The notes under the pieces: model-generated | The model's database searches: none | Seen by the model: only the letters and a program-made list of their open reading frames with translations | Told to the model about the DNA's origin: nothing | Position numbers and translations under genes: made by a program | Part shown: in pieces, positions 32,722-56,534 of the stretch | Position numbering within the stretch: the stretch's first letter is position 1 | Layout of the letters: each line of letters opens with the position of its first letter | Assembly: GCA_010093515.1 (NCBI GenBank) | Contig: MU001670.1 | Coordinates: 1,953,354-2,017,353 of the forward strand | Reading direction: 5' to 3' | Length of the DNA stretch: 64,000 nt | Origin: Lineolata rhizophorae | Lineage: Eukaryota; Ascomycota; Dothideomycetes; Lineolatales; Lineolataceae

Positions 32722-34115
32722 ATGTCCAGTAACCCAGACAAGCTTAGGAAATTTGTCGGCAAGGCCTTTGGCGGCTCCCCAGGGAAATCCAAGGGCAAGG
32801 AGCCCGTCATCGTGGAGTCTCCGAAGACCGTACTTATCACAAGTGGGTCCCACTAATTTCTGCTCGAGATTTCTTTGCCTTTCAGCAGCATTACATCATA
32901 CAGCTGTAGTTTTCCCTAACATTTTGAGAAAGATACCAAGGATCGTTACGGCAGAGCCTTAGCTAAAACTTTCATCCACCATGGATGGAACCCTATTGGC
33001 ATCCACGTAACACTGCTTAGCGATAAAGAGTACCAAGACAACCATCCGTGGAACACCGGAAAGGTCGAGAATGACGGCATCAACGAGTACTATATCAACA
33101 TGCAGGAGAGCAAAATCGCCAGCCAATTTGACGAAAATTTTCAGAACGTGAAGGATGAGCTCCAAGACAAGGGTGGTGTTCACGCCGTCATCTTTTGCCC
33201 ACCAAGTACGTACCCGAAGCTCCACCTCCCCTATCTGAATCTTGCTTGCCATGGACATGCCTGACTGGCGTGCAGCGCACTGTGGCCCTCACGGGAATCG
33301 CGGCTCGGCCCTCCCGAGAACGGATCTCTGGGAGCGCAAGAGTTTCGTGGACCTCCAAGAAGCGTTCAGCACCTTCGTTTTGGTGAATGTCCCGGTCCCC
33401 TGGTTTTGCGACTTACGAATCGAAAGTTCCTAACGACGAGGGGGGTTTCGCAGAAGCCGCTTTTGCTAGCTCCGTTCCTGGTGGAGACGTTCATGGGCGG
33501 CGTCCAGGCGCCGAAGCTGATCGTCACGCAGCTCGATTTTCTGCCCACCATTTGTGCGTCAGTCCCGCCCATAGGGACCCTTCTCCTATTGACGAAAAGG
33601 GATAATACTAACTGTGTCTTGTAGCCGGACGGGAGCTGAACTTGTACACGGAACGACTCCCGGATCGCCTGATGCTCGCGGCCAACCTAAGCGCTATTGT
33701 GCACATCAAACAAAATTTCAATCATACGCCGAAGAAAGCCAAGCAGGCCGGGTCGAAGAAAGACACCTCACCGACATCTGCTAAGGCCAAGTCTCGCATG
33801 AGTACTGCGGCGGTCAAAGGAGCGTCGGAATCCGAAGGCCGGACCCCGAGTCCGGGCCCGCGGGGCCATCTCGACGTCGCCGTCATGCTGCTCCCGTTCA
33901 CGGACCGCCACGGTTCTTCCAACTTCCCCGAGGACGTTCCCGTCGAATCTCACGGCACGGAAATCAAAGGGGAGTTGACGTTGCAGGTGGAGCACATTTT
34001 CAACGTGTGCAATGAGGAACGGTTGAGGGGTTACTTCATCGACGTCGAAGGGAGGCCTATCAAGGAGGAGGATTATTGCCTGCTCAAAATTTCTCCACGC
34101 GTCGCAAAGCGCTGA
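32722..34115 (+). CDS. divergent SDR/Rossmann-like protein, five exons (paralogue A)
   Basis: Exons 32722-32842, 32933-33205, 33276-33382, 33454-33553, 33625-34115; 363 codons; all GT-AG. After a basic N-tail comes SPKTVLITNTKDRYGRALAKTF, in the place of the first beta-alpha unit of a short-chain dehydrogenase, but without TGxxxGxG. GGVHAVIFCPPS sits where SDRs have NNAG, VDLQEAFSTFVLKPLLLAPFL where helix E lies, and ERLPDRLMLAANLSAIVH where the YxxxK helix lies, with neither catalytic residue. The fold is therefore inferred and the protein is probably not a standard oxidoreductase. A Lys/Ser-rich insert and an extra C-terminal domain of about 110 residues follow. The gene model is supported by paralogue B at 55.4-56.5 kb, with the same intron positions and phases. 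Function unknown. Confidence 0.72.
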
Positions 34116-37100
34116 TGACGCGCCCGGCCGTGTGCCCTCGGGATCAGAGCGGCCCTGCGGCACACGAATGTCCTTGCGCCGGTCGGTTGCCGGGCCTTGA
34201 CTTCTTAGCAACATTTTGGCTCATCTTGTTGTCGCTGAGTGACAGTTGACGTCCGGTCTACCTGCCCTGTAGAACCCCCCTTCTTGAGTGGACACTTTAC
34301 GATGGCAATATATCTGTTCTTTTCATCTGTCTTTCAATACTGTGTGTAAGTGTGAATCGCCCTTCTTCTCCTTCCCAACACAGCTATTTCTTCACTGGAA
34401 ACCAGAATACCAAATCACGCGAGGAGGGAAGCAGGGCGGGGTATCAATCAAGTTATCAACATCCGTAGTGTGCACGACATGAGTCTCACCGGGACGGACT
34501 AGGGGCCGTGCGTGCCGCGAGGACCGTGGCCGGTTCGTGATGTGTACTCGGCGTAGAACTCGAATCAAGTGGATATCGATGCATAGATCGATTCGACCTC
34601 ATGGGAGCGAGAGTTTGGTGGCCTCGCGGGTCGAGGACGGGACACGACGGCATGTTCGATGGCATGTGTTGGGTGTTCGAACCTGGGGACATTGCTGGTT
34701 TCCATGGCGGTGGAATCAAGCTATGCGGTAAGGAGCCAGCAAGACGTGGAAATAGAACGTACAAAGACATCTTTAAAACGAAGTGCCGCATTCAAGGATG
34801 TAGCGGATCCGGCCGAAGAACAGAAATACCTAGACTAGGCCGCACGTAGGCGGGTATGTACCCACTTGGCACGTTCCACCCACGTGCTCACTCCACGGGA
34901 CCCAGCCCACTCAGCCGGCCCGACTCCGACAGAACCAGCGCCTCCTCCCCTTCCCCCCGGCCCCGCTGGACCCCGCAACGGAAACTTCCCCGCCTCGGGA
35001 ACTTCGGCATGCCGTGCCATCCCGCCGTCTCACCCTCCCACCAAACCACGAGCTATCTCTCGTCCGCGAACGGCCGACCCTGTAGTAGCTGTGGAAGCAG
35101 TGCGATGAGCGAGCGGGTTAGCGCGCGTGGCTTGATGGCTACTTCCCACCACCTTCGCAGCTGTACGGCCGCAGAGAAAGGCGCGAGCGAGAGCCTGGAA
35201 GGAAGGAAGGCTGGCTGGCTACTTGACATGAAAACGGGCGAGCTAGGCCCGTTCCAGCGCGTGGAGAAAGGCTTTGCGGTCTGGCCGGATGCACGCCGAC
35301 GCGGCCTCGTCACGTCAGGCAAGAGGGATGACCATGCCGGGGGAGCTGAAAGGAAAAAAAAAAAATAGTAGTTCGCCGTGCTGGAGCGGAGCTAGCTTCA
35401 TACATAGCTGCTGTATGCGTCCTGCCCGGCGGCGGGGTCGATTGGAGCGGCAGGGCACGTTCAATTGGTCAATTGGAACTGCGCACGCTCCTGTGAGCTA
35501 AGCAGGTACCTACAGTACCTCAGCGCAGGGCCTTCATGGTGCAGAACACGCATCCGTTCTTGTCAGGATGTCGCCAGCGCCCGGCCGAACGGACGCTCTG
35601 GCGCTTGCCGGTATACAGTGGGCTCCGATCGAGTCTCGCGCAACTCCCACGTACATAGCCCAGCTAAGTGAGGCTGTCTAGGTCGCCCTACCTACCTACC
35701 TACCTCGCCTATCTAGCCACGTACCTACCACCACCCCTCTGCAGGCCTACCTATGTAGCCGGCCAGCCAGCTCGTTCTCCAACGGCTCCCACGCCGCAGC
35801 AGGTGGCGTGTGCGTCTAGGCCCCAGCACGGCGCGCCCGCGCCCAGGGTGCATACGTAGGTAGGTACTCCGTAGGTAGGTCCCCGATTATGCGGGTCCGG
35901 GCGCCCGAATCGAGGGTGTTGGGGACGAGTTTCGAGGCTGTGGCGGGTGTTCTGGAGGCGGTTAGGAGGTGCGTATGGAATGGTCAGAGTATCACGATGC
36001 GGTGCGGCGCGGGGCGGGGCGGGCGGACGCGGAACCACGTTATGGCGGAGAAAAGCCGTTGCCTCCTGTCGAGGAACTAAACTACATACCTAGGTGTCCG
36101 GCCCGCCTGCTACATAGCTACTGAGTAAGCGGGTAGGGTAGGGTAGGTAAGTTTGTGGGTGAGGCGACTTTCACGCCTCGCTGGCGTGCGTGTAGCGTGG
36201 CCAGACGGCCGGGCTAGTCTAGCCTAGCCTAAGCCCAGCGATTCCGATCACGCCTGCGTGCTATCTATCTACCTATTCCCGGCTGTCAGAGGCTGGTGGG
36301 GAGAGGGGCGAGGTGAGAGCCCCACGACGATGACGACCACCACCACTGAGAGACGATGATAGGGAATTATCGCGATCGGAAGAAGTATTTTTTTTTCCCC
36401 CTTCGCCCCTTCTTTCTTTATTCCCTCTCTTTCGACGCGCTGGGCCCTGCATATCATGATCTGATCTCCCCAGCAGCTCGAGATGGAGGTGGTTGAAATC
36501 AAAACCCCAGCTTCAGGCGCCCTCTCCCAGCCAACCAGCCGCCAGCGCCGGTCCAGGCCGCTGGATGACGGACGACCGGGGCCAAAGCGCCGCTGGCAGC
36601 TGCGCGTCGGGGTTCTGGCTCCGGATGCGCTGCTGGGTTGGGTCGGGGGGGCAGGCCAGGCAGGTACCTTGTTGTCGCCGCCGCCGGATGTCGGATCGCT
36701 GATTTAAGGCCGCTGGGAAACGCAATGGGCCATGGATATTTGTCCTCGCAGTGCCATGCCCACTTCCGATATACATACATACGCATGCCCATGATGGCCC
36801 TTTCCCAGAGAAACGGGCCAGCAAATGCACGTCGGCTGAGCGATAGGCAATTGCGGGCTGCGCGTCCATATTGTGTGCGTAGGGGCGTGGGTTGGGATGG
36901 ACGGCCGGGGGGACTCGAAGCGCCGGTGCGTGCGTGCGTGCGCCACGGACAGGCGAGGCGCACAACCTGATGTGTAGGCCGTTTGGCCGTTCTCCCTCAG
37001 GTACGGCGAAGTACTCCGACATGTACAAGTACTCGGTACCTTACATGGTCCTCCTCTTCCGGCGCCCGGGGGGAGGGGGGGAGGGGAGGGGGCGCGAAGG

Positions 37101-39367
37101 CAAATGACGATTGTAGGGATTGTAGTCCCATCTCAAGCCGTTCTAGGCAAAGCCTGCGAAAGAAAAAAGGTCCGTCCGTGATGGGTAGGGCAGATCGCTC
37201 GGTTCGAGGAGCGCTGTATGTACGTAGCTCTACGTAGCTTCGAGCAGCGACAGACAGACGTACCTATGTATACATACGACAGGACGGCCTCGACCTCGGC
37301 GGCGGGCCGAGGGGCCAAGACCGTTGGCGGTAAATTTCGTCATGCCGGGCCATGGCAACCGTCTTGTCTCCAGTCTCCAGTCTCCACTTGCGTTAACCAG
37401 AGCTGGCAAAACCCGCCCCATCGTATTCCCGCTAGAGTTTCCCCACGGCGGGGGACGGTCTGAGATCTCGACTCGGCGGTTCGATGTCGGCGGCCGTGTC
37501 GGCCAAACTGCTCGTGCGGGGGACACTGGAGTACATATGAAGGCACTGAATGCCTATGTAGCCATGTACGGACCTAACTTAGCGTTTGGTTTCCCCGGAC
37601 TGATCGCCACCGATTTCTGCGGGTGCCGGCTTGTACTCAAAGGTACCCGCTAGGCCATCGCATCTCGGCCCGCGACCAGAGCGATCCCAGTCCAGTCGCC
37701 TTGCAGCGCAGCACCAGCGCCTTCTTTCGGCTGCCGATTTGGCGTTGGGAGGGACTGGGAGGGGAGGAGAACGGAAGACCCTCGGACGCGGCGCGCATGC
37801 ATGCATGCATGCATGCATGCATGTATGCTGCCGTTGAAAAGGCAGTTCCGGCGCCGCTATCTACTGTGTCGATGGGGCCGAAGGGGCCCTTGCTGCGCCG
37901 GTTTGCATGTAGGCATGTATGTACTGTATGTGCAAGCCTGGCCTGCGCGGCGGGCGACAAGGCTTGGTACGTAAGGTACGTGCGTGCGTGGATACCTACA
38001 TAGATACTGTAGATAGGGACAGGATGGATTGGGGAGAACGATGTGCTCCCATCTTCTCTCTTCGGTCGCTTGGAGAGCGACGAGCCGAACGAACCGGGCG
38101 GAGTCAATCGTGGACAATCGGGCTCAATGGCAAAGATAAATTAAAAAAAAAGTTTTAGCGAGCGCAACCCGAGTGACGCCTGAACGTACGGCGTCCGGAC
38201 GCCATACAGAGAAGAAACTAGAGTGTTCTACCGTTTGCGCGCGCCGGACCCAAGTCTGTGCCTAGGTACCGGCCCAGTACAGCCACAGCAGCATCGCCGT
38301 CTTGGGCTCGTCCGGCCAAGGCCGCGTCCAGACGGCCAAATCAACGCGCAGCCGTTACCTAATGAGGGTCTGGCGGACGGGCCAACCCGGTCGAGGGTTT
38401 ATCGCGGGCCGGCGACGGTATGTGTGTGTGGGTGTGTGGGCGGGCGAGCGCGGGCGAGCGTGGCCCGCCTCCGCCCGCGAGGATGTCCGGGGAGGGGGAG
38501 AGAGGCGATATTCCCCAGGCCGGGGCCCGAAAGCTGCAATTAGGGCTAGGCTGGCCGGCTTCTAGCAAAAGTTAGCACGTTCGAGTTGGCCCTTTCTCCG
38601 CTTTTTTTGCAACCGTGACGATCTCGTGCTCGTCCGCCGCCATCGTGGGCTGTGGACTCGCCGCGTCGCGTCCTTGCGCCCTCCGCCCTGCAAAAGAAGG
38701 CCCGCGTCATCTCCCTCGCCGTCCGCTTCCACACCGCACACCTCGCGCCCGCTTTGCGCTCCCCGTTTCTCCGCACCCCCCCGTTGCAGCAGAGCCCGGC
38801 TTGCGCGAGTCAGAAAGGCCCGGCGGCAACAAGCGGGAGGCGACGGACGCGGCGAACTCGACTAACTTCTAGCCTGGGACCGCCTTCCCCGGCCCGCAAC
38901 CAAAACTCCACGCCCTTTGCCTGCTGCTAGCTCCTACCCGCGCAACGTACCCACCCTCTCTCTCCCCGCCGCCGCCTCCAGGGCTTACCAGCCGCAGACT
39001 CGCTCTCTTCCACGGCCATCATGGACCTCGCCTGCTCGTAGGCCGTCGCGCAGCAGGACCAGTCCGGAGCCGCCCGAGCGGAGTAAGCCCCGTGCGGGCG
39101 AGAGACCCCGGACCCCGTACGCGCATCCAGTCCATTCGCAGCACCCGCCCGCCTTCGCCGCCTTGCTCTCCGCCATCGGCTCACCACCCTTTCCCGCTAC
39201 CTGTCCACCTCCGCGCCCCCAAGACACGGCCACCCGGCCTCTGCACGCGCGTGGAGATTGCGATTTATTCGACGCCCGGCCGCGACCCAGGCTTGTACTC
39301 GGGTCCTGAGCTCCAATCCCTCCCTCCTGGTGGTCCCTGCCGGGGACGCACAAGCTCCCAGCCCAAG
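34116..39367. other. long spacer upstream of the Mga2/Spt23 gene
   Basis: No supported gene in 5.2 kb. CTAC/GTAG microsatellite-like runs lie at about 35685-35710 and 35855-35880. A (GCAT)n tract lies at about 37795-37824. There are many CCTAGG, GGTACC and TACGTA words. 38.6-39.36 kb is C-rich with pyrimidine runs and is the probable promoter and leader of the next gene. Confidence 0.5.
37795..37824. repeat. (GCAT)n microsatellite
   Basis: Seven or more uninterrupted GCAT units ending in GTATG. Self-complementary, so it can form a hairpin. Non-coding. Confidence 0.9.
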
Positions 39368-42300
39368 ATGGCCACCGGCGGCGGAGATGGCGGCGGCAAC
39401 GACGATTTTTTCGGCCAATCCATGATGATGGATCCGGACGAGAACGTGTCCAAATGGGCCGACGAGTTCAACCTCTTCGGCAACCAGGTCGACGGCGACC
39501 CGACCGACTTTGCCTTCTTCAACGACTCCCCCCGACCCTTCCCGCAAGACAGTGCCAGCACGCCTGGTTTCCCCGCTTCCACGCCGCAGGCCTCGGGCCT
39601 TGGATCCGCGCAGCTCGTTGCTCAGCAGCAGCAGCCGCAGCAGCCGCAGCAGCCGCAGCAGCCGCAGCAACAGCAGCAACAGCAGTTGCCGCAGCGACAG
39701 AACAATCAGGCGCTGCAGCTTCGCTCGCAGGGCTCCTCCTCGTCGCCGGATAGCTCGGGTCAGGATTCGGCGTCGGACGCCTCGTCGTCGCTGCGGCGGA
39801 AGCGCAAGTCGTCCTCGCAGTCGTCGCCGATGCACCTGTTCGACAACATGGACCACAACGCGGAGGGCAAGGCTTGGACCGCCAATCCGGCCGACCTCAT
39901 GGGAGACATGCACGGCGCCGGGTCCGGACAGGACCCGTCCGCTCCCGTGCCCAACCGCGCGCCTGCGGGCCTGGAGCGCAAGTTCGACAGCATGCAGGTC
40001 AACCCCCAGGACGTCCAGGTGAACAACCTGTTCGACTTCGATGGCGCCGGCGCTTCGCCGAACTACTTCGACCCTTCGGTCGGCCCGGGACCTGCCGGCT
40101 CTTCTTCGGAGCAAACCATGGCACCGCCGAATCTTCACGTCAATCCGACGCTTGTTCACCGGCAGCACCCCAAGCCTACCCGTCACAGACCGCAGAAGTC
40201 TTTCAACGATGTACGTAGCAATTCTTTTCACTATACTAGATTTAAACACCCGACTTCTGACAAATTTGCAAGATGCCTGGCCCGTCTCGCCAGCAAGCTA
40301 GTTTCTTTTTCGGCGAGTCGCGAGAACCGTCACCGACTTCGGCCGGCATCATTCCCAGCCACGAGGCGTCACCTTCGGGCCCGTACTCCGGAGATTCGCC
40401 CGAACAGCTCGACTTCTCAATGGATGCGGTTGGTGGCGGCGGCGGCAGCGGCTTCACCTCCGCGGTGAATCAGAACCCATCGTGGCCGACCGAGCAGGGT
40501 CTGGATTTCGCGTCTTCCCCGCAGCTCGGGTTGCCCAACTCGACGTCCTCTCAGCCTACCGCCGCAGGCCAGTTGGCGGACCCGCCCATCTACCTCTACA
40601 TCGACCCGGTCAACAGCAAGTCGCGGGTCGAGACCCAGATCCCCATCAAGCTCACCATGTCTCGCCTTCCTCCGGGCGTATCCAAGATGCACTTTCCTCG
40701 ACCCTCTATTTCCAAGCCTAAGCTGCTGTCGAAGGAGCCGGCCCGGTCGCCGGACACGCTCGAGCTGTACACTTCCCTCGTCTGCGCGAGCGCCATGGAG
40801 AACCAAGCGCTCAAGGACAGGGCTCTGCGTCGGGCCCGGGGCGAGTACGTGCCCCCGCTCGAGAGCCGGCGTTCGTCGATGGAGGCGCAGGCGAGCGAGG
40901 ATGGCGAGGACGGGGGAGCCGGCGGCAGGTCGGCCATTCGCGAGGAGGATAAGCCGGCCAATGGGGGCGAGGTCAGGGTGTGCGGTAACTGCATAGTGCG
41001 GGAGCGCAAGCGAGCGGCCCGCAAGCGAGTCAAGAGCGTCGACGACGAGAACGAGTGGCTGAGCATGGAGAAGAAGCGCAACGTCGTGTTCAACGTGAAC
41101 GAGTACAAGGACTGGGCCAAGCCGGCTCCGGTCAAGGACGCCAACGGTGCGATGGTTCAGGAGTGGCCCAGCAGCGCCATGCAGATCGAAGCGCCCATGC
41201 GGATCGCTTGCTACTGCCGTCATCACCAGGAGAAGAAGGGCTTTCGGGTCATTTTCACGCTCAAGGACTACGAGGATAAGCTTGTCGCTCAGAACATGAC
41301 ACAGTCGATTCTGATCACGGACGACCACAAGACCAACGGCGTGCCGGCGGTTTCGAGCGTACCCGACATGGAATACCTGCAGCAGATGCACTCGCAGAAG
41401 AAGAACTCCCAGGCGCAAGGCTCAAAAAACCCAGCCTTCGCCTTCGGCCAGCAGCGGAACCCTCATCAGCCTGGGTTCACGTCCCATCGACCGTACTTCT
41501 CTCATAGCGATCTTCAGAGCCTCCGGGCAAACCCTCCCAATTTTTACGGCAATAGGAACGCGTTGGGAGGTCAATCGCCAAATATGCCCCTTCAGGCGGC
41601 GTCGACGACCATGACGCCGCGCAATCTTTCGAGGCAGGCATCGCCGTCGATAAGCTCAGGTCCGAACAAGAGACGCAAGGGAAGTTCGTCCGTACACAAG
41701 ATGCTTAGCGATCTTACCATGACGCGAGCCGACAATCCTCCTCCGAGCGTGTCGATACCGAATACCACTTCAGCTCCCGGCAACGCCTACACGCCTACCA
41801 CGACGTCGTTTGGGACCGCCCCAAGCCAGCCGTTCGTGTCTCCGACGACCATGCCCGGCGGTTTCAATACCGGCCCACCTACGCCTAACGGTGTGACGAG
41901 CGGTCCTGTCACACCGCACCCTAGCCGCCGTTCGGAGAGCATGGACAACGGGTACGGTTTCCAGATCTACCACTCCGCGCCGAGTTCGGCCCATCAGAGT
42001 AGGGCGCCGAGCCCGCTGTCTGCCACGCGTCCGCCGACAAACCACTCTCTCTTCCCGCCGCAGCCGCCGCAGCAACATGCGCAGCTCGGCGGTCCTCTCA
42101 TGCATCCTACTGGTCTCCCATTCGACATGAACACTGCAGCGATGCAGTCTTCAACATCAGCGCCCCCGCCACAGATCCACAAGGTATCACCTGCCGAAGG
42201 GCCCAAAGCTGGTGGCATCGAGGTCACGTGCCTGGGTAGCAACTTCCATCGCGGGCTTGTGGTCATGTTTGGCGAGCTCGAGGCTACGGTGACGACGTTC

Positions 42301-44657
42301 TGGGGGCCGACGACTCTGATGGCGCTTCTGCCTCCGTCGCCGGATCCTGGGCTCGTCGCCGTGACTTTGAAAGACGACAACGGGTCCCGGCATCCGCAGC
42401 CCAACGCGCTCGGGCGCGGCCAGCCTCTGACTTTCCGCTACCTGGACGACGAGGAGCCGCAGGTCATGAAACTCGCGCTCCAAGTCCTGGCTCACAAGCA
42501 GAACGGCTCGTCGGATTCGTACCGCGAATTCGCGCAGAGCGTCATCGCCAGCATGGCGCCCGGCCAGTGGGGTTCGAGCGGCGGCGGCATGGGCGGCGCG
42601 GGCGGCGGCCAGATGACGGGCCTGCAGCACATGCTGGCGGCGGCGGCGGCGGTCAACGCCGAGGACGTGCTGCTCAGCTGCCTCAACCTCATTGACATGG
42701 ACGATAGCCCGCACCAGCCGCGCTGGAACCTGCGCTCACGGACCGGCGCCACGATGCTCTCGCTCGCGTGCGGCCTCGGCTACGAGCGCCTCGTGGCGGG
42801 GCTGCTCGCCCGCGGCGCCAACCCGGACGCCCGCGACCGCGGCGGCTTCACCCCGCTCATGTTCGCGGCCCTGCGCGGCCGCGCCGACATCGTGCGCCGC
42901 CTCATCCTCAAGGGCGCCGACCCAATGCTGCGCAGCTTGAATGGGTACCTCGCCGCCGACTTCGCGGCCGCCGTCGGCGACGACGACGTCCTCGCGGCGC
43001 TCCGCCGCGTCCAGTTCCACCGCCGCACCCGCAGTGCCGGCGCCGCTTCGTTGCGTAGCGGAGGCGGCAGCCGCGCGAGCAGCTTCGCGTCGGTGCGGAG
43101 CGGCCTCGGCGGCTGGGACGCGGGGCTGCGGCTGCGGCTGAGGCGGTCGGTGTCGCCTTTGGGCGGCGGCACGCGGCCAGGCTCCTCCTCCGCGGCCGGT
43201 GCCGAAGAGGAGGAGGAGGAGGACGACGACGACATTGACGGTGTGCTGTTGTCGGCCACGGAGGACGAGGACGAGGACGAGGATGAGGACGCCGGCTCGT
43301 GCGCCGCGCTCGACTTCGAGGATGGCGGCGCGGTCGCCGTGCGCTGCTCGCCGGTTCCGCCGGCGACGCCGCTCTGGTCGCGCTCGCGGCGGGGCAGCAA
43401 GGCTTTCGCTGTGGCAGCGGCGGCAGCGGCCGGTGTCGAGGATGTGCCGCGCTCCGACGAGGACGCGGACGAAGACGACGACGACGAGGCCGAGGACGGC
43501 GGGAGCGCCGCGGCGGCGCTGGGTGCGCCGGCAGATGCGACGGCGACGGCGGTGGCGGCGGCGGCGCGCGACTCGGCGGCGGCGTCGCTGGCGGCCTGGC
43601 GCGACCACCTCGCCGCCCAGATCAACAGCTTCCACCAGTCGGTCGGCTGGGCGGCGGCGGCGGTCGCGCTGCCGAACCTGGGCTCGCTGCCGATGCCGCA
43701 GATGCCGCAGATGCCGCAGCTGCCGCCGGCCGTGGCGGCGCTGGGCCGGCCGCAGCTGCCGCAGATCCCGGCCGAGTACCAGGCGCACCCAATGGTCAGG
43801 CGCATCAGCAGCCTGGTCCCGCAGAGGGGCGCGAGGTCCGATTTCGAGCTCACGGTCCGGCCCGGGGTGGCTGAGGGCGCCGGCGTGGCTGAGGGCGCGG
43901 GCCCGGCCCCGGCCGCGGTCGCGGTTGCGCCGGCTGCGCCGCTCGCCGAGCCGGATGCCGGCGCGGGCGCTCCGCCTGCGTACCATGAGATTTACCCCGA
44001 GGGCGGTAGCGGTGGTGGTAGCGGTGGTGGTGGTGGTGGCGCTGCCGCCACCGCGGACGCCCCCGCGCCGGATAAGAAGCGCGCGGCGTTTGCGGCGGCG
44101 GCCGAGGCGGTGCTGGATCGAAGGTGCGCGGAGGCGTTTGGGGAGGGTGGCGGCGGCGGGGAGGACGATGTCGCGGCGGCGGCGGCGCTGGCGGAGGGGG
44201 ATGAGGCGGCCGCGGCGGCGGCGGTGGATGAGGCGGGCGGCGAGCAGGCGACGCGGGCGGTGGACGTCAAGATCGGGCCCGAGCGCGACTTCCCGCCGCA
44301 GGTGCGGGACCGGATCCGCGCGGCGAGGGCGCAGGCGGTCAAGAGCGGGCCGAGGGATCGGCGGCTGTTTTTGCTCTGGGTGAGTCGCGACTTTCCTACC
44401 CTTTTTTTTCTCGTTCGGGGCCGGCGTCGGCTCAGATGTGCGGTCCTGGTCTTATCTTGTCTGGTCTGGTCTGGTTTTGGCTGACTTTGCTCCCGCTTGG
44501 CCGGATGCAGATACCGCTGCTGCTCGTCGTGGTGGGCATGATGGTCAAGAACGCGGTGCCCGACGTGGTGGCGGGGGCGAGGACCGTATACGAAGTTGGG
44601 AGGAGGGTGGTGGATGGCGAGGGAGAAGGGGGGGTCGAGCGCCTGGGGTGCGTGTGA
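39368..44657 (+). CDS. mga2: Spt23/Mga2-type membrane-anchored transcription factor
   Basis: Three exons: 39368-40210, 40273-44379, 44511-44657; 1698 codons; introns 62 and 131 bp. Order of parts: acidic Gln-rich N-terminus; Spt23/Mga2 homology region (about 385-640) with YLYIDPVNSKSRVETQIPIKL and MHFPRPSISKPKLLSKEP; an IPT/TIG domain (about 913-995; KVSPAEGPKAGGIEVTCLGS, VVMFGELEA); two ankyrin repeats (about 1101-1175; GATMLSLACGLGYERLVAGLL, GFTPLMFAALRGRADIVRRLI); long Asp/Glu and Ala-rich tracts; and a C-terminal membrane segment LFLLW/IPLLLVVVGMMVKNAV. In yeast this family sits in the ER membrane, is released by ubiquitin/proteasome processing, and activates the fatty-acid desaturase gene in response to lipid packing (family knowledge). 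The last intron splits the membrane segment. Confidence 0.95.
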
Positions 44658-46247
44658 GGGCGGAGGTGGAAGGGGAAGGCGTGGGAAGCTCTCCGGCGGA
44701 GCTTACGTGCCGACCTTTTCTTTTAGCTTCGTTTCCGGCTGGGGTAGCTTTCTGCTCTTTCTTTAGCCCGCATTCCGATGGTTAATGTATAAGTGGCATC
44801 TTTTTACTTAATAATTTGTCGTTGTCTTTTTGAGCCGGGAGTTTTTTTTGGGGGAGGGGAGGGGAGGGGAGGGGAAGAGGGGACCGGGGCTCCGCAATGA
44901 TGGCGGTAATGTTTTGGGGACTTGCAAGCCCCCTATTTTAGCTTTCCCTTCTCGCTTTTCGCGTCTGGCGGCCGGCCGGCGCCGGGGACGGATGACGCGC
45001 CGGACTCGTCCGTCGCGGGCCTCGATGGGCTGAGAGCGTGCTTTGTCCTGCGTGCTCTTGGCTTTTGCTTCCTTGTGCTGGTTGCGGTTCGTGGGTTGAG
45101 GGGAGGGGCAGGGGCAGGGGCGGGGGGAGAGGGAGACGGAAGGCGGGCTGGGCTGGTTGCTTGACTTGTTTTCTGCGTCTACCTTTTTTTTTCCTTTTTC
45201 CTTTTTTTTTTTTTTTTGGTGGCCCTCCGGTTCGGCTTCTTGTCTTTGTCTTCGTTCTACTGGTTTGTACCTGGGTTGTATCGGGCCCGCGGGGAGGCGG
45301 GGGACCCATGGCCTAGGCCGGGCGGGCGGGCGTGCCTCGTCGGTACGGCGGCGCCGGCCGTTTGCTGGGGTCGGCTGCGTGGATGGACGGCTGGTGCGCG
45401 GCTTGGGGACCTGGGCTCGGCTTTCTGTGGTCGGCCAGGGGCCTCTTGGGATGACGTGCGGGGGGGAATTTGGGGAGGCAAAGAGGGCTGGATCGTGCGG
45501 GGGAAGCGGTGAGTGTGAAATGGGGTTCTCGCGGCGTATGTTTTCGGTATTGCACGGGGTGGGTTCACGGTTTCAAGGCTCGTGGTCTTGGTATTTTTCT
45601 TTTTTTTTTTTTTCCTTTGCTCTTTTCTAGGTTTTAATCGTCATGCTGGCTTGAATGTTGGTATCGGTATCGGGCGGTGGGCGAGCGTGGGAAAGGGGGA
45701 TTGTGGACGAGCGGCCCCGCGGATCAGAGCCGAGATATGCCGCGTGCTTTGGAATGGAAAAGCTTCTTGAAGTGTGACTTGGGTTGTGGCGGGGAGTGCG
45801 CGCGTTGAGAATGAGTGGCGCGGGGGAGATTGTGTTTTGGTGACGCGGAAGGTTGTCGTTGGGATCCTGGGCATTGGACACGCTCAACGTCCGCTAGTCC
45901 GTACGTCTTGATGGCCAAGGATTGTAGATCCTGTTCTACCCCTACTCACACCAAGCCCCGGCACTGAAAACCTCTTTCCCCACACAAACACAACCATAAC
46001 CGCAGGCCCCAACGCCGGCCGAGGCATAAAAGGACAAAGGCTGTTTTCCCAGTATTCCTCCGTCCCAGTCCTATGCTCACCATGCTCCTTCCCATACCAT
46101 CTGACTGCCTCACAACACGCCCAATGCCAAATCCGCACCACGCGCCTCCGATTCATCCCGGGAGAAAGGAAAAGAAAAGAAAAGGTCACGCCGCCATCCC
46201 CCCCACCCTACCATCCGTATCCCTCAGCCCCTCCACCCACACCCACC
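44658..46247. other. convergent 3' spacer
   Basis: Between the Mga2/Spt23 stop (plus) and the XRCC4 stop (minus). T-rich runs (45185-45220, 45598-45615) are likely parts of 3' untranslated regions. A G-rich run lies at 44850-44883. No gene recognised. Confidence 0.5.
44850..44883 (+). repeat. (GGGGA)n run, G-quadruplex-prone
   Basis: Consecutive GGGGA units form at least four G4 runs in about 34 bases, 190 bp beyond the Mga2 stop codon, probably inside its 3' untranslated region. Confidence 0.6.
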
Positions 46248-47750: not shown

Positions 47751-49624
47751 TTGGTGGCGTGTCGCCGTTTTTCTTTTCTTCACCCCCCCCTCCCTCGAGT
47801 CGTTGCGCTCTGTTTCTGGTTTTATTGTTGTCTTGCTTGACTCGCTTCGCTTGTGATGATGACGCTGACTCCGCGTGATGTGGTGAAACAGAGAGGGGAG
47901 CTAGTCGGGCGCTGCTCGAAGTGACTTGCTACTCTTCTTCTTTTGGTTTCGTCTTTCCCTGCTTCAGGTTGATGTCTAAGCAGGAGGACGTAGCACTCGA
48001 GCGGTCGGCCGTAGCTAGAGGCGGGCGGGTTGGTGATGACGGATGGCGGCGGCGACGCGGCGCGTGGGTTGGCGCCTCGCCGGACGAGGGAGGCACGTCT
48101 GCGGAGGGGCCTGCCTGCGTAGGGCGGTGGGTAGGAGCGACGGCGACGGCGGGGCAATCGGGGATGATGCGGGAAGGCGGGGCCCGCCAACAAGAGCAAC
48201 TGCAACCTGCCGATGGGAACCGGATTTTTCCCCCTCGCATCCAGGCACATATGCTGGCGATATGCCCAGGTGCTATGTAGGAGAGGTAGTGTACAGAGCG
48301 GCACGTAGATCTTGCCGGACGCGCATTCACTCAATCAGGCCGATCCGTCGTGCCGTCGTTGCCTAGATCCTGCTACCGCACTGCACACCAGTGGTTGCTA
48401 TGCGGGGGAGTCACACGGACGAGGCGTCAGTGTGGGAACGGCCGCGCAGTCGCCGTTGTCCGGCCCGGGGAAGCTCTCACGAAGCCGCCTGGCGGGCCGC
48501 ATGTACCTAGAGCTATCGATTGTGACCTCGCGCAGAGGAGAGGGAATCGCCGTGTGATCCCACGCGTCGCACTCTCCGGCCGGCGCGAGTCAAGCGAGGA
48601 GGGGCCTGCGAGACACAACAAAAGCCGCGCTCGACGCGTCGTCGTCGCGTTCGTGTGGGACCTACCTGCCCACCCACCCAGACAAGCACGTACCTACGTG
48701 TGTAGTGCATAGTACGGCTCGCCCGCCCGCCCGCCGCTCGATTCGAAATATATATGGAACCAATCTTGGGCACATTGGGCGGGGCGCGCAAAAAATAGAC
48801 AAATAAATAAAATAAAACAAAAATTGAGCGGGTCCGCGTCTCGCACCGCGTCCGCAGAGAGGGGCGTATATATATGATATGATCCAAGGGGGGAGAACGG
48901 GGTGTGTGCGCACGCGCCAGTGCTATGCTCTTGGAATGCGTACATAGATCCAGCCGGGCTGGACCGAGTCCAGGCCAAGAGACACAAGAGACAGAGAGAA
49001 AGCGGTGGTGACCGGGGTGAGCTAAGAGAGCGAGTTGACGGGGCGAGGCGCGAGAGTGACGCGCCCGGGTTTCAAGAGGCCGCGGGCAGCCACAGGCGAA
49101 CAAAACCAGGCCGTGCGCACGGCCCACCCCGCCGGCCCGGCGCCCAGCCAGCAGCTGCAGCCTGCGCCCGCCGTCCGCCCGCCCCAGCCTCCGGCCGCAG
49201 CCCTCCTCCACCGCCTCCGCAGCCGCATTCCATCCACCGCTCTTGCATCCACCACCGCCTGCATCGCGGAACCTGGCACGCGCCCGCGCACTCGCACATC
49301 CACACCCACAACGCGCATACACGCACGCACGCACGCACGCATCCCGGCTTCAAGAACCCGTCCATTGGCCTCATCGAGCGGTTGCGACGGCCGTTTGCCA
49401 AACCTTCGCCTTTGCGACCACCGCCCGACCGTCTGGCAGACCACGAAGCTTTTCGCGCGCGCGCGCAGCTCTTTTCTTTTCTTTTCTTTTCTTTTTTTTT
49501 CCCCTCTCGCCTTCCCCCTTCCTCCCATCCGAGCTTTTTTCCCGACCACACAAGATTCCTCGCTCGAACGGATCCGCCGACCTGAGAGCGCGCGCACAAA
49601 CGAACATCCGCCTTCCCGGCCGTC
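47751..49624. other. divergent promoter region between XRCC4 and Byr4 genes
   Basis: 1.9 kb between start codons pointing outwards. The right part (49.1-49.6 kb) is C/T-rich with a (CTTTT)n run near 49473-49495 just before the Byr4 start, a usual fungal promoter/leader feature. No gene recognised. Confidence 0.5.
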
Positions 49625-52600
49625 ATGGCCACTACCTCCGCCGGCAGCACGACTGGCGGCGGTAGTAGCAGTAACAAGCCGCAACCTCTTGCTCTCCAGC
49701 GCCGCGGCGCCGCCTCGCCCGTCGTCGAGAACTGGGACGACGACGGCGACTTCCAGGGCGACCTCTCCTTCGGCACCGCGCTTTCGTCCTCCAATGGCAA
49801 CAGCCACGGCGGTCACAGCTTCCACCTCGGCCACGGCGGCAACCCCTCGGCCGCCAGCACGCCCGGCAACGCCTACGCCCAGTCGGCGTCGTCCCGCCTC
49901 TCGATGCACTCCGAGTCCAACGCCGGCGACGACGACTGGCAGCTCTTGATCGCGCCCCACGACGAGTCGTCGACCCGGCACGCCATCTCGTCGGCCAACC
50001 AGGCCGGCATCCCGCTCCCCGCCAACGTGCCTTCCTCGGCCCTCCTGGGCGGGTCGATCAAGCGCCTCGGCAACCGGAAGAAGCCGACCCGTCCTAGCGA
50101 GCCGACCGCCGCCGCCGCCGCCGCCGCCGCCGCATCAGCAGCAGCAGCCGCCGGCACGGGCGGGGACGACTGGTCCGACGACTTCGACTTCCCGGCCGGC
50201 GCCGGCAGCGGCGAGCCGGGCGGCGGCCAGAGCTTCCTCGACCGTTTCCGCCGGAAGCAGCAGCAGCAGCAGCAGCCTGCTGGAAGCGGCAGCCACCTTG
50301 GCGTCAACCGGAGCGGCGGCAGCGGCGGTGGAGGCCCGCCTTCCACGCCGGGCAGCCACGCCGACGCCAACGGCGGCAAGAGCCCTGCTCCCACCTCCGC
50401 CCCTACCACCACCACCACGGGAACGGGCAACGACGATGACGACTTCGACCCGGACTGGGCCGAGGGCAGCCTCGGCATCCGCTTCGGCGGCACGCGGCGC
50501 GGCGACAACCGCGCCCGCAGCTCGTCCGTGTCGGCCTCGGCCATGAGCCCCAGCCTCGGCAGCTGCATCACGGCCGACAGCGAGCTCGACGAGGACGTGC
50601 TCGACGGCCTCGTGCTGCCCTCGGAGCCCGTCGACTTTGGCGCCATCCTCAAGAAGCGCAAGGAGATCGAGTACGACCAGGAGCACCAGGAGCACCAGAC
50701 CCACCGCCGCCAGCCCGCTTCGACCGCCGCCTCGTCTTCGCGCCCGCACTCGCCTGCCGACAACGACGACGCCTCGGCCTCTGCCTCTTCGTCCGCCGGA
50801 GCGTTCGCTAGAGCGGGTGAATATCCTCCAAACGCGGGCGGTCTCGCCGCATTCACGTCGGCCCAGCCGGCCGGTTTCGTCGGGCCGTCGCCTCGCAGAC
50901 CGTCCTCCCTCTGGGCCAAGCAAGACGACTCCAACGACATCGACCCGCTTGTCGGCCTCGACTGGGGCGACGGAAACCTCCTGAGCAACAAGAAACTCAA
51001 GTTGAACCGCAACCTGAAAATCACCGTCACTTCCAAGCGCCCGCACACGCCTGCGCCTCGCTCCGGCACCACGCTGACCTTCACCACCGCTGCTACCGAC
51101 AACAAGATGCCGCCACCATCGGTGGCGGCCTCGGCGTCGACCGCGACCGCAACCCCGACGTCTCGCATCCCGCGCCCCATGGCCGGCGCCGGCCACCACG
51201 GCGGCGCCAACGCCCCTCCGTCCCGCTCCAACAGCCGCCTCGCCCCCGTCTACGAGTCCGGCGCCCAGTCGAGCCAACAACAGCAGCAGCCCGGCGGCCG
51301 CTCCGCTTTCTCCGCAGCCCAGCAGCTGCTCCGGCAGAAGCGCTCCGCGCCCCTGCTGCGCGGCAACCGGCACCATCATCACCATCACCGCGACATCCAT
51401 GGCGGTTCGGAGACTGCGGACGCGCCGGGCAAGACGCCGCTGGTGCCGTTCCTGCCCGCCGGCGCGGCGTCCGGCGCGCGGTCGCATCACGTCTCAAGCA
51501 AGGCTTCGGCGGGCAACTTGCGGCGCGAGGAAGAGCAGCTTCGTCTCGGCGGCGCCGGCGGCGGCGCTCAGTCGCCTGCCCCTCGCTCGTTTTCTCGTCT
51601 CGGCGGCGCGACGCCTTCCGGCGACAGTCCCACGCGCACCGGCCGCAGCGGCGGTAACAACAACAACCACAACCACAACAATAATAATAACAACAAAACC
51701 AACGCATCCCACCAGCAACCCGGTGGCCCTCACGTGGCGCCCGCGTCCCTCGTCCGCGAGGCCCTTCACAAGCAGCCTTTCCCCGGCAGCTTGCTGCTGC
51801 GCCGCCGCCCGCAGTACTACGGCTCGGGCGCCGAGCTCGACGGCTTCGACGACTTGCCGACCTCGGCGGCCAAGGAAGCGCGCTTCCTGCGGGAGCCGGC
51901 GAACGCGAGCGGCAGCGCCAACAACGGTGCGAACGCCGGGACCGCGGGCCCGTCTTCGGCATCGGCCTCGGCCTCGACCTCGGCCCTGCGCCACCAGGGC
52001 AGCCGCTCCCGCGTCGCGGGCCCCACGCCCATCCTAGCCGACGCGACGAGGAATGGCGCCGGCACGCCGGCGCCCACGACAGCGTCGGCGTCGACGCCGC
52101 GGTCGCCGTCGCGCACGTACCCGCCTGGCCTGGCTGGCGGCGAGAACGCGAAGCCGCACTTTGCGAGGGACACGGCGGCCAGCCGGATCGCGCGCGAGCA
52201 GCGGTTGGCGGCGCGAGGCAATGGTGGAGGAGCGGGCGGGCCGCTGATGCCCGTGTCGACGAATTGGAAGGGCGGGAGGACGGGAACACCGGGGGGAGGA
52301 GGGGCGGCGAGTCCGAGTTCGTTGTTGAGGAGTAGGAAGAGGGGATCGGGGTTGGCGGGGGCGGCGGGGGCGGGAGCGGCAGGTGGGGTGAGGCAGCAGC
52401 CGCAGTTGATTAAGCAGTTTGCGAGTCCGAAGAGTGAGTCTTTCCTCTTTTTCTGTCTCGGTTCCCCGTTTTAGAACGTGTAAGACGAACGGGACTGACT
52501 TCAATGCAGCCGAAAAAGGGATGACGTACAACGCCGCGCTGCAGCGCTGGGAAGGCAACGAGAACGCGCTGGCGGCCTTCAACGCGCCGCTGCCGCCGCA

Positions 52601-53948
52601 GCTGCACGCCTTCAACCACGACCAAGACCCGCTCAAACACGACGCGCCGTACAAGCAGCCGCAGCACGTGCAGCATCACCATCAGCATTCGCATCCGCAT
52701 CCGCATCATTCGCATCATCCTCTCCGCGCGCATCACCAGGCCACCAGGTCAAATCCGAACTTGCCTCTAAATCACCACGGCGCCGCCCATGGCGTCTACC
52801 AGCACCATCACGGCAACCACTCGTCCTCGGCCCTGTCGCACGGCGCCGGCCAGACGCACACGCCGCGTCCCAGTTCGTCGCATGTGCACGTGCACACTTC
52901 TAGCGGCGGCACCGGCGGCATCGGCGGCTCCACCGCCGCCGCGGCTACCCCAGCGTCTCCGGCCCGCGTCCCGGGCCTCATCTCGCATCGCAGCGCGGCG
53001 CGCGGCGTGCACGTCGAGCGCGGCATGGTGTTCGACCCGCGGCAGATGAAGTGGCTGAAGCTTGGCGCGGAGCACCGGCGCAAGGGGGACGTGCATAGGG
53101 GTGGTGCCGGCGGTACCACCGCTACGAAGGGGGGCAGGCAGAGCGCGACGCCGACAGCGGACGGGACCGACGACGACGAGGATCCGTTTGCGGGATTGGA
53201 GGACTTGAGGGAGGATGGCGGTGGGGCGGCTAGTAGTGGTGCGAACGGGGCACAGGGCAAGGACAAGAGGAGCAGTGTCGGCTGCGCGGGCCCGGGCCCG
53301 GTGGGCGCGGCACTGGGTCTCGGAGGCGCGCCAGCGGCCGGAGCGGGAGGCCCGACCGGCGTCCGCATCGGCAGCTTGAACCTGAACTTGGGCGGCGCGG
53401 CGGCCGACGCCGAGATGGCAAACCAGCAACATCGGCCCCGCTCGACGCCCTCGGCCGGCCTCGTCGCCGCGGCCGCTGTCCCCGCCGTCACCCGGGGCGG
53501 CGACCCCGCCACAGTCGCCCCGTCTTGCGCCGCGCTGCCCCCGGACGCGAAGCTCGCCGGCGTCCCCGTGGCCGCCACTGCCGCCACCGCTGCCGCCACC
53601 GCCGTCCCGCCGGCCCCAGCGCCCCAGCAGGACACCTTCCTCGGCGAGGAGTTCGACGTCGGGCCGGGCTTCATTAAGCGGCTGCGCGACGAGGAGGCGG
53701 CGTGGCGGCGGCGGGTCGAGCGGTGGGTGGGCGGCGAGGTGGGGGAGAAGAGGCGGAGGGCGGAGGACGACGAGGCGGGCAGGGAGGCGGGCTTGTTGGG
53801 GGTGCTGGTCGGGGCTGCTGCGGGAGGTGGGGTGGACGGGTTGGCGGCGGTGGAGTGGGGGGCGGTCGAGGGCGGGCCGGGCGGGGATGTCGAGGGCGGG
53901 GGGTGGAGGTGGGGGATTAGGGAGGTTGCGAGGAGGGCGGGGTTGTGA
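49625..53948 (+). CDS. byr4: Byr4/Bfa1-like septation network GAP scaffold
   Basis: Two exons, 49625-52433 and 52510-53948; 76-bp intron; 1415 codons, long for the family. The N-terminus has repeated acidic-aromatic motifs, ENWDDDGDFQGDL (about 35), DDWSDDFDFP (about 180) and DDDDFDPDWAEG (about 270), as in Byr4. LVGLDWGDGNLLSNKKLKL lies near 440. Exon 2 holds the conserved block GMTYNAALQRWEGNENALAAF (about 940) and then LISHRSAARGVHVERGMVFD, PRQMKWLKLG (about 1090-1118), and GEEFDVGPGFIKRLRDEEAAWRRRVERW (about 1310). Linkers are Ala, Ser, Gly, Asn and His-rich. With Bub2/Cdc16, Byr4 forms the two-part GAP that restrains the Spg1/Tem1 GTPase at spindle poles and limits septation (family knowledge). 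Confidence 0.92.
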
Positions 53949-55443
53949 AGGTTTGGGCGCGACGAGCATTTGGTTTTTGCTGCTTTTCTGTTACGGGGAC
54001 TTTTAGATGGTTTGGGGGAGGGGTTTATTTCTTTTTTTTTTTTTTTTTGGCTTTCTTCTCCCGGGACTCCTGGGCCTTCTGAATTAGGGGTTGAGTCTTG
54101 TTTCTGCGGAAAGGAAAGGGGGATTTGGGGGAGGTTCTAGTTTCTTGCTTTTTTTTTTTTTGCTCACGACATACCATTGTTACGACGATATTGCTACGGC
54201 CGAGGGACCTGGTATTGCATGCGTGCGCGCGGGCATTTCTTCTTGTTTTTTCTTGCATTGGGGCCTTTTGGCTTTTGGCTTTGGCTTTGGCTTTTGGCTT
54301 TTGGCTTGTTCACGGGTCACGGGCGCGGGCGAGGGGCTGCTTGGGACCCGGACATGTGTGTCCCTTTGTTGGTACCCTGTTGGCCTTTTTTGTTTGTTTT
54401 TGTTTTTTGGTCCTGGGCTTTTGAGGCTTGCGGACGGGATTTTCGAAAAGTTATGATGTTATGACTGCGAGGACGTAGATTGGGGGACGGGTGCGGCGCG
54501 CGCAAGCGGGGGGTGAGGGGAGGGAGGGTAATGGGTTGGGCGCGGATGGGAAGAAGGGACAAGGAGAGGGAGAGAGAGATGGGGAGGCTGCTTGAGGCGT
54601 GGCTTTTTGGGTTCTTCTTTTCCTTCTGATTCTTGGGGTTTTTGTGCTGTGAATTGTGGGACTAGGGGCTTGTTTGTTCTTTCGGCCCCTCTCCCCCCCT
54701 TTCTCTAAGGCAGCTTTTTGCGCTTGGCCTTGTATAATTAGACTTGCGGGAGCGGACAGTGGGGGTGTAATGGGGATAGGGCTGGCTGGGCGGCTGGCTG
54801 GGTAGTTGGTCCGCGCGCTTTTTTCAGATAGAGGAGGAGGGAGGTGAGGGCGTGAATGAGAAGAGAGTAATGGTTTAATTTTTTGGTGCGCTGTCTAGGG
54901 GAGGGGTTGTGATGTGTGATGTGTGATGCGTGATGCGTGATGGTGGTTGGTATGCGGAGGGAGTGTTGGTGGAGGTGTGGTGGGGAGGTTGCTTGGGGCG
55001 AGGGATGTAGTGGTGAGTCTAGCGCTGTTTGCTGGGCGGGGAGTTTCGGTCTTGGTTGCTGGGGCCTTGGAAGTGCAGTGGGTGACTTCCTTGCTTGGAG
55101 AGAGGAGAAACGGTGGTGTGGTCCGGCGACGTTTGGGTCCACGGTAAATGGTCGGGGGTGGACCGGGGGGGGAGGTAGTTTGGGACTCGGTGGGTTTGGC
55201 AAAAGCGAGGGTCGATGCGCGCGGTCGTAAAGAGAGTATATATATTCTGGGAACAAGCTGGCTAGGTAGATAGGTCTGGGAGAGACGGGGTGGGAACACG
55301 AATGTTTTCTGGTCGGATTTTCTGGGTGCTACGTCGGTTTGGATGGGGTTGAAATGGCAAAGATGAGAGAAAACTTGTCAATATGAATGATGTGCAGGGG
55401 GATGTTTCCACGGCCCGTTTCACAGGGCAATGCGTAGGTCGTC
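53949..55443. other. convergent 3' spacer
   Basis: Between Byr4 (plus) and the Rossmann-like paralogue B (minus). Runs of T and a repeated TTGGCTTT word (54264-54308) mark probable 3' untranslated sequence. The plus strand is G/T-rich to 55.2 kb. No gene recognised. Confidence 0.5.
54264..54308. repeat. TTGGCTTT short tandem repeat
   Basis: About six copies of a 6-8-bp GGCTTT(T/TT) unit in the likely Byr4 3' untranslated region. Not a fungal telomere repeat. Confidence 0.75.
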
Positions 55444-56534
55444 CTAGCTCTTCGGAACCGGCTCGGTCGCCACCTCGAACTTCGGGGCCAGTTTCAGGCC
55501 GCAGTGCAGCTCCTCGTCGTACGGGTTCCCCCTGAAGCTGAGGTTCGCGGACAGGATCGCCCGGTCCACGATGCGGTCCGCGAACCTGTCGCCGTCCCAG
55601 GTGTCCGGGTCTGTTGGCGCGTTGTGAGCTCCTCGGGTCGTTGACGACGGTTCCGGGTGCGGGAGCGAGGACAAACCTATGACGGGGCCGAACGACGGCT
55701 GCAGGAAGAGGATCCTGGGCGACATCCGCTCGTGGCGGAGCTGGGTCAGGAAGACGTGCGTCGTGGACTGCGGGCCCTAGGATTCCATCGTCAGAAGTTG
55801 GACGCCAAGACTAGTGGGAGTCGTGCTCACGATTGCATAACGGTTGAACATGTCCTGCATGTCGTCGGGACGAAGGCTCTCCCATTTGCTGCGTGCCGAA
55901 GGCAGTCGAAGACGGCCAAAGCCTTCGACCCCAATTGCTGGGTTTTCGTCAGCCGATCCATATCGCACGGTTTACGGTTCGCATACTTGACGGGCAGCAG
56001 ATGCAGAGGTCCACGCCGCCTATTTCCTTGACCTTTGCGACCAGAGCGTCGAAAGAGTCCTCATCTCCAGCATCATGAGCTTTGCAGCCTTCTTTAAAGC
56101 AAAGCTTGTACTCCTTCATGGTCTTTGCTGCCCACGGTAGGTCGCCCCAAGTTATTGTGCTAGGGCCTGCCCGCTCGCCGGCCTCGGACACATCGTGAGT
56201 GTCAGCAAGGGCGTTGTCCTCCCTTTCTCCAGTGCACATCAGGATGCCCAAGACAGTCCACTCTTTCCTGACGAACGCTTGACCCAGGTTTCTCGCGTAG
56301 TGCGAGTCGGTATCTGTGGCTCCCAGCTCAGCTACTCATGGACCGCAAGGCTCCCCCCCCTCACGCAGAACGAGGAGGGGCTACAGTTCGACAAGGCCTT
56401 TTTCGGGAATACGCACTCGCGATGATCACGGTCTTGTCCTTGTCATCGACAGGCTGCGAAGCATGTTCCGTTTCCGCCCCTTTGCCAAAGGCATGAATGG
56501 AGGCTCTGGCTTTATGAAAGAGACAGCTCGGCAT
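55444..56534 (-). CDS. divergent SDR/Rossmann-like protein, five exons (paralogue B)
   Basis: Exons 56534-56417, 56313-55987, 55937-55831, 55776-55677, 55610-55444; 272 codons; introns 103, 49, 54 and 66 bp, all GT-AG. It aligns along its length with paralogue A: KTVIIANTDSHYARNLGQAF with KTVLITNTKDRYGRALAKTF; GVDLCICCPSST with GVHAVIFCPPST; LPSARSKWESL with LPRTDLWERKS; FADRIVDRAILSANLS with YTERLPDRLMLAANLS. All four intron positions and phases are the same, and exons 3 and 4 are exactly 107 and 100 nt in both. It lacks the Lys/Ser insert and long C-terminal domain of A. No TGxxxGxG and no YxxxK, so a catalytic SDR role is doubtful. The start is the first ATG after an upstream stop-free TTG stretch. 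Function unknown. Confidence 0.75.

What the first reader, a model, noticed from the sequence alone, without database searches (positions are those of the whole stretch)
32722..56534. Two paralogues of an apparently undescribed Rossmann-like family share intron architecture exactly
The genes at 32722-34115 (plus) and 55444-56534 (minus) align from end to end at low identity. They have the same four introns at the same positions and phases, and exons 3 and 4 are identical in length (107 and 100 nt). The order of motifs mirrors a short-chain dehydrogenase, but the glycine-rich cofactor loop and the Tyr-Lys pair are absent in both. Paralogue A also carries a basic insert and an extra C-terminal domain. 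Loss of the same residues in two long-separated copies suggests a maintained non-catalytic role, perhaps ligand sensing or scaffolding. The alignment and exon lengths are read from the sequence; fold and role are inference.
Basis: partly seen in the sequence, partly recalled or inferred. Interest (0 to 1): 0.7.

Follow-up and report, generated by a model that had tools for sequence, protein, structure and literature searches.

The report
Two degenerate dehydrogenase-like fungal paralogues
Two neighbouring fungal genes are old copies of one ancestor that looks like a common dehydrogenase that lost its cofactor and catalytic residues, so they probably work by binding other molecules rather than as ordinary dehydrogenases, a modest but testable case of enzyme retirement.

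Summary
Gene A (32722-34115, +; 363 aa) and gene B (55444-56534, -; 272 aa) each splice into one open frame with four GT-AG introns. All four sit at aligned codons in the same phase (1,1,0,1), and exons 3 and 4 are 107 and 100 nt in both. Identity is about 31% over 240 aligned residues, far above shuffles. Shared introns are what duplication of one ancestor predicts.

Neither protein hits Pfam, NCBIfam or PDB sequences above threshold. The A+B profile aligns in order with classical short-chain dehydrogenase/reductase (SDR) genes of the same genome (score 37; 0 of 200 column shuffles reach it, maximum 23.7). NmrA, epimerase, zinc-alcohol-dehydrogenase and methyltransferase sets score 16-22. GxxxGxG, NNAG and the active-site YxxxK are absent from both. 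Some replacements are identical, so one loss before the duplication is simpler than two.

Best reading: an SDR-derived pseudoenzyme pair, probably a binding or regulatory scaffold. Function is inferred. Full-length folds and fungal relatives could not be tested.

The parts
32722..34115 (+). Gene A, 363 aa, five exons: 32722-32842, 32933-33205, 33276-33382, 33454-33553, 33625-34115 (stop included)
   Evidence: Splice model giving one open frame; all four introns GT-AG
32843..32932 (+). A intron 1, phase 1, splits the codon at the first-glycine position of the SDR TGxxxGxG loop (here Asn41)
   Evidence: position against the SDR profile read from the alignment
33206..33275 (+). A intron 2, phase 1, just after the NNAG-equivalent (FCPP)
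33383..33453 (+). A intron 3, phase 0
33554..33624 (+). A intron 4, phase 1
33693..34043 (+). A-only internal block (residues 224-340 in the MAFFT alignment): a basic, Ser/Pro-rich 57-residue stretch (12 K+R, 3 D+E, 4 SP/TP) and then about 60 further residues; absent from B
   Evidence: genomic limits computed by hand from the exon table
55444..56534 (-). Gene B, 272 aa, five exons on the minus strand: 56534-56417, 56313-55987, 55937-55831, 55776-55677, 55610-55444 (stop included)
   Evidence: Splice model giving one open frame; all four introns GT-AG
56314..56416 (-). B intron 1, phase 1, same codon as A intron 1
55938..55986 (-). B intron 2, phase 1, 49 nt, same codon as A intron 2
55777..55830 (-). 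B intron 3, phase 0, same place as A intron 3
55611..55676 (-). B intron 4, phase 1, 66 nt, open in frame if retained; called by homology with A intron 4

Best explanation
A and B are paralogues from one old gene duplication whose ancestor was already a degenerate classical SDR. The N-terminal two thirds keep the SDR order (beta1 - alpha - ... - beta4 - alpha4). The dinucleotide-binding glycines, NNAG and the Tyr-x-x-x-Lys catalytic pair are gone. I infer that the products are non-catalytic (pseudoenzymes) and act through the surface of the remaining fold, as a protein- or ligand-binding regulatory subunit, without canonical NAD(P) redox chemistry. The basic Ser/Pro-rich stretch in A would be a flexible interaction or regulatory segment that B lacks. 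Shown: gene models (from sequence), paralogy, shared introns, motif loss. Supported by profile statistics: SDR ancestry. Inferred only: lack of activity, a binding role, the role of A's insert, and the order of loss and duplication.
For: The A+B profile (two sequences) against 16 SDR stretches of the same genome scores 37.0 local (129 columns, residues 27-180 of A, P 1.7e-4, HH-suite probability 49%). 0 of 200 column shuffles reach it (maximum 23.7), and the reversed alignment gives 13.9; in global mode 23.4 against a shuffle maximum of 11.5. A second set of 11 SDR stretches gives 37.4; 107 six-frame segments of the window and its flanks reach at most 18.2. Other sets score lower: NmrA 21.6 (7 genes), epimerase 16.0, zinc-ADH 17.3, methyltransferase 18.8 (8 loci each). 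The part from residue 67 of A onward still aligns in register with the beta4/alpha4 region, 23.2 against at most 21.1 in 100 shuffles. Sub-threshold hits of A to an SDR model in NCBIfam (PRK09134, E 0.033) and of the profile to an SDR structure 4nbr (E 0.98) fall on the same beta1 segment. No GxxxGxG, no N[NTA][AC]G, and no active-site YxxxK in either protein. Intron 1 sits at the same codon and phase as in 2 of 16 SDR loci of this genome, L006 and L027, read by eye. Coding constraint: intact frames, and codon differences of 129, 94 and 148 at positions 1, 2 and 3 over 240 codons.
Against: HH-suite probability is only 49-55%, while 5 of the 11 SDR stretches, each left out of the set in turn, score 141-197. 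A alone barely scores (21.9, 30 columns). In the family searches chance-like hits rank above the SDR ones: GspD E 0.028, glycogen debranching enzymes E 0.052 and a dynein regulatory protein E 0.3. A's C-terminal part shows no SDR signal (11.9; 49 of 150 shuffles do as well). The exon-wise AlphaFold models are of low confidence (pLDDT 48 and 35), and Foldseek on the better one listed nothing with E below 1. No expression, binding or knockout data. An unusual cofactor or relocated active site is not excluded.
Confidence: 0.6

Rival explanations
1. The pair belongs to another Rossmann-like or alpha/beta family, unrelated to SDRs by descent; the SDR resemblance is a generic beta-alpha-beta signal.
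For: Family searches give no significant SDR hit. HH-suite probability is about 50%. The C-terminal part of A shows no SDR signal. The weaker NmrA match also lies on the first beta-alpha unit (residues 26-63).
Against: Other Rossmann-type sets from the same genome score 16-22 against 37 for SDRs, and two separate segments align in the SDR order. Only four other sets were tried.
Confidence: 0.2
2. They are active enzymes with an altered cofactor site and relocated catalytic residues (a divergent SDR).
For: A keeps a tyrosine (Y208) near the expected place and one loop glycine, G47. The first-half profile signal is retained.
Against: After Y208 the next lysine in A is K229; B has no Tyr at residues 183-247 and no Lys at 167-256. 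Two of three loop glycines are replaced in A and all three in B; NNAG is replaced.
Confidence: 0.12
3. They are decaying remnants with no present function.
For: Strong divergence and loss of defining residues; B lacks a block that A has.
Against: Both frames are intact over 363 and 272 codons with 8 of 8 canonical introns. Second codon positions differ least and third most (94 against 148 of 240), and 35 of 71 identical residues (Met and Trp aside) are written with different codons: this fits protein-level constraint over a long time, though sites may be saturated.
Confidence: 0.08

Closest known systems
Classical short-chain dehydrogenases/reductases (SDR superfamily; Pfam adh_short PF00106 / adh_short_C2 PF13561)
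   Same: Order of the beta1-alpha, beta4 and alpha4 segments; profile similarity above all nulls tried; intron 1 at the TG codon, phase 1, as in 2 of 16 SDR loci read in this genome.
   Different: TGxxxGxG, NNAG and active-site YxxxK missing; no Pfam SDR model listed even with the cut-off at E 10.
NmrA and HSCARG/NMRAL1 (regulatory NAD(P)-sensing SDR relatives)
   Same: Precedent for an SDR fold acting as a regulator by protein binding; NmrA lacks the catalytic Tyr (PMC10219401 and PMC3793261, passages seen).
   Different: A and B match the NmrA set of this genome only weakly (21.6, probability 1%). NmrA-type regulators sense dinucleotides (same passages), whereas A and B have lost loop glycines.
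MAT2B, regulatory subunit of methionine adenosyltransferase
   Same: An SDR-fold protein used as a regulatory subunit (PMC3793261, abstract parts and passages).
   Different: MAT2B keeps the glycine motif, NADP binding and the YxxxK triad (same passages); A and B do not.

Membership tests
SDR superfamily (classical) | Profile similarity to the family above its threshold | tested here: not met
   No adh_short or adh_short_C2 hit listed in Pfam with the cut-off at E 10; only sub-threshold SDR hits. Profile-profile similarity is above nulls but at about 50% probability.
SDR superfamily (classical) | Cofactor loop TGxxxGxG | tested here: not met
   No G...G.G in A or B; aligned residues TNTKDRYG (A) and ANTDSHYA (B). 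Motif named as diagnostic in PMC9859523 (passage).
SDR superfamily (classical) | NNAG motif | tested here: not met
   Aligned residues FCPP (A) and CCPS (B); no N[NTA][AC]G in either. Motif named in PMC11354438 (passage).
SDR superfamily (classical) | Catalytic YxxxK | tested here: not met
   Y208 in A is followed at +4 by Leu; B has no Tyr at residues 183-247 and no Lys at 167-256. A's one Y...K is in the tail (351).
SDR superfamily (classical) | Rossmann fold with the SDR topology | tested here: inconclusive
   Only single exons could be folded; B exon 2 gave helix-strand-(loop)-strand-strand-helix-strand at pLDDT 48, A exon 5 pLDDT 35; Foldseek uninformative.
NmrA-like family (PF05368) | Profile similarity | tested here: not met
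   No Pfam hit; profile comparison with seven NmrA-type loci of the genome gave score 21.6, probability 1%.
SDR-derived pseudoenzymes (as a working class) | No oxidoreductase activity with retained fold | not testable with these tools
   Needs purified protein; only the loss of residues is shown.

The most novel reading that the evidence does not exclude
A fungal SDR-derived family that has shed both the dinucleotide-binding loop and the catalytic pair, was then duplicated and kept, and now works as a cofactor-independent scaffold. It would go one step beyond NmrA and MAT2B, which retain nucleotide binding.
Probability: 0.35. Interest if true: 0.42.

Novelty: new variant of a known kind. Interest (0 to 1): 0.24.

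Why it matters
SDR-fold regulators are known, but the published examples whose passages I saw keep NAD(P) sensing. A pair that lost the cofactor loop before duplicating and still stayed under protein-level constraint would show that the fold alone can be retained as a binding platform. It would also give what are probably 'hypothetical' fungal proteins a likely ancestry. The shared introns themselves are ordinary.

Tried and rejected
Third paralogue: single-protein searches of the own genome with A, B and a 98-residue part of A returned only the genes themselves. That tool scored only 1-4 candidates each time and did not find A from B or B from A, so more distant copies are not excluded. An A+B profile over the six frames of the window and 10 kb on each side put only pieces of A and B above the inclusion threshold; one further segment had E 0.24. 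Prokaryotic and viral contigs: no relative confirmed (both work from two short peptide patterns).

My own idea that A's C-terminal part is the SDR beta6-alphaG-beta7 stretch, deleted in B, was tested and not supported: 11.9, equalled by 49 of 150 shuffles. It stays a guess.

Intron positions as proof of SDR ancestry: only intron 1 coincides exactly with an SDR intron (2 of 16 loci, L006 and L027). Of the 16, by eye, 7 have an intron somewhere in the glycine loop. Further SDR introns looked at (L037, L026, L036) lie off A/B intron 3 by about two bases to several codons or more. This is weak support, since introns cluster there.

Segmental duplication: a self-comparison of the window's six-frame segments of 50 residues or more at E 1e-4 listed only the A/B pair. 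Introns of A and B aligned above letter shuffles by 1.4 to 3.5 standard deviations; shared splice signals may explain that, and it was not pursued.

Structure: exon-wise models and Foldseek were uninformative. Sub-threshold hits to glycogen debranching enzymes, a dynein regulatory protein, 2H phosphoesterase, GspD and an unnamed PHROG family were put aside as chance. Papers: the listings of searches showed no report that I recognised as this family; this covers only the open-licence library and those terms, and one search listed 10 of 136 papers.
Full report
Observation. Both gene models were rebuilt from the sequence. Gene A runs 32722-34115 (+), 363 aa; gene B runs 56534-55444 (-), 272 aa. 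Each has five exons and four GT-AG introns. Intron phases are 1, 1, 0, 1 in both, and each intron falls on the aligned codon in the two proteins. Exons 3 and 4 are 107 and 100 nt in both; exons 1, 2 and 5 differ (121/118, 273/327, 491/167 nt). The proteins score 158 in local alignment against at most 59 in 500 shuffles, with 74 identities in 240 aligned residues. B is longer in exon 2. Residues 224-340 of A (117 residues) have no counterpart in B, and a 17-residue stretch after that block is shared (score 45, 1 of 2000 shuffles reach it). B's intron 4 is open in frame if retained, so it is called by homology.

Is the intron sharing remarkable? No. Two copies of one ancestral gene inherit its introns. 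Conservation of splice-site position and phase across vertebrates within SDR families is described in PMC9859523, which also reports invertebrate exceptions (passages seen). At about 31% identity it shows common descent well. It says nothing about function.

Constraint. Frames are intact. Over 240 aligned codons, differences number 129, 94 and 148 at codon positions 1, 2 and 3; of 71 identical residues other than Met and Trp, 35 use different codons. That fits long protein-level constraint. No expression data were available.

Known families. Pfam, NCBIfam and PHROGs gave nothing above threshold (two proteins each). A profile of the two against PDB sequences gave no significant hit. Two sub-threshold hits are to SDRs and both lie on the first strand-loop-helix (PRK09134, E 0.033; 4nbr, E 0.98), but other, chance-like hits rank above each of them (GspD E 0.028; glycogen debranching enzymes E 0.052 and a dynein regulatory protein E 0.3). 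No fungal protein collection could be searched, so 'undescribed' means undescribed in these libraries.

SDR ancestry. I built SDR profiles from loci of the same genome. With 16 SDR stretches the A+B alignment scores 37.0 over 129 columns (P 1.7e-4, probability 49%). None of 200 column shuffles reaches it (mean 13.5, maximum 23.7), and the reversed alignment gives 13.9. A second, trimmed set of 11 gives 37.4; 107 six-frame segments of 180 aa or more from the window and its 10-kb flanks give at most 18.2. Other sets score lower: NmrA 21.6 (7 loci), epimerase 16.0, zinc-ADH 17.3, methyltransferase 18.8 (8 loci each). From residue 67 of A onward alone, the alignment still matches in register with the NNAG/alpha4 region at 23.2, above 100 shuffles (maximum 21.1). 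Against this: 5 SDR stretches left out of the set in turn score 141-197, A alone scores 21.9 over 30 columns and A's C-terminal part shows no SDR signal. I read this as remote but real SDR ancestry for the N-terminal two thirds.

Motifs. The SDR loop TGxxxGxG is aligned with TNTKDRYG in A and ANTDSHYA in B; NNAG with FCPP and CCPS; the alpha4 asparagine with Phe165 in A and Tyr182 in B (read from the alignments). A has Y208 near the catalytic tyrosine's place, but +4 is Leu and the next Lys is K229; B has no Tyr at residues 183-247 and no Lys at 167-256. Alignment in this last region is uncertain by a residue or more.

Introns against SDR genes. Of 16 SDR loci whose 5' part was printed, I read by eye 7 with an intron inside the glycine loop, and 2 (L006, L027) at the codon and phase of A/B intron 1. 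The other A/B introns have no exact match among the few further SDR introns inspected. Weak support only.

Structure. B exon 2 with A exon 2 gave pLDDT 48 with elements H-E-E-E-H-E; A exon 5 gave pLDDT 35. Foldseek on the first listed nothing with E below 1. No conclusion is drawn.

Mechanism. The best reading is a retired SDR kept as a binding or regulatory subunit. Precedents are NmrA, HSCARG and MAT2B; PMC3793261 says that NAD(P) sensing unifies such SDR regulators (passages), and PMC10219401 that in NmrA the catalytic Tyr is replaced (passages). A and B differ in having lost the cofactor loop too, so dinucleotide sensing is not expected. The 57-residue basic Ser/Pro-rich stretch in A (12 K+R, 3 D+E, 4 SP/TP) could be a flexible interaction or localisation segment. 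These last steps are inference.

Surroundings. No third copy was found in the window or 10 kb on each side or by single-protein search of the genome, within the limits of those searches. The A/B pair is the only paralogous pair listed in the window's six-frame self-comparison, so this is not a visible block duplication. Neighbours include a putative cyclase next to A and an eIF2D/SUI1-type gene beyond B.

Verdict. Interest is modest: an SDR-derived pseudoenzyme pair with unknown role.

Noticed in passing
window 8361-10157 (-): ORF with a heterokaryon-incompatibility HET domain (Pfam PF06985, E 4.4e-15).
   Followed up: no
window 14591-16297 (-): ORF with the C-terminal half of a Velvet factor domain (PF11754, E 7.4e-36, profile 123-236); the first half is perhaps in another exon (not looked for).
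   Followed up: no
window 31145-32293 (+): Putative cyclase (PF04199, E 4.9e-10) ending about 430 bases before gene A on the same strand.
   Followed up: no
window 40273-44484 (+): 1403-aa ORF of the SPT23/MGA2 type, with DNA-binding, TIG and ankyrin domains.
   Followed up: no
window 49625-52474 (+): 949-aa ORF without any Pfam match at E 0.01.
   Followed up: no
L006, L027, L029, L032, L033, L034, L036 (SDR loci of the same genome): 7 of 16 SDR loci read by eye have an intron inside the glycine-loop codons, at five different codon/phase positions: introns seem to cluster at this loop.
   Followed up: partly
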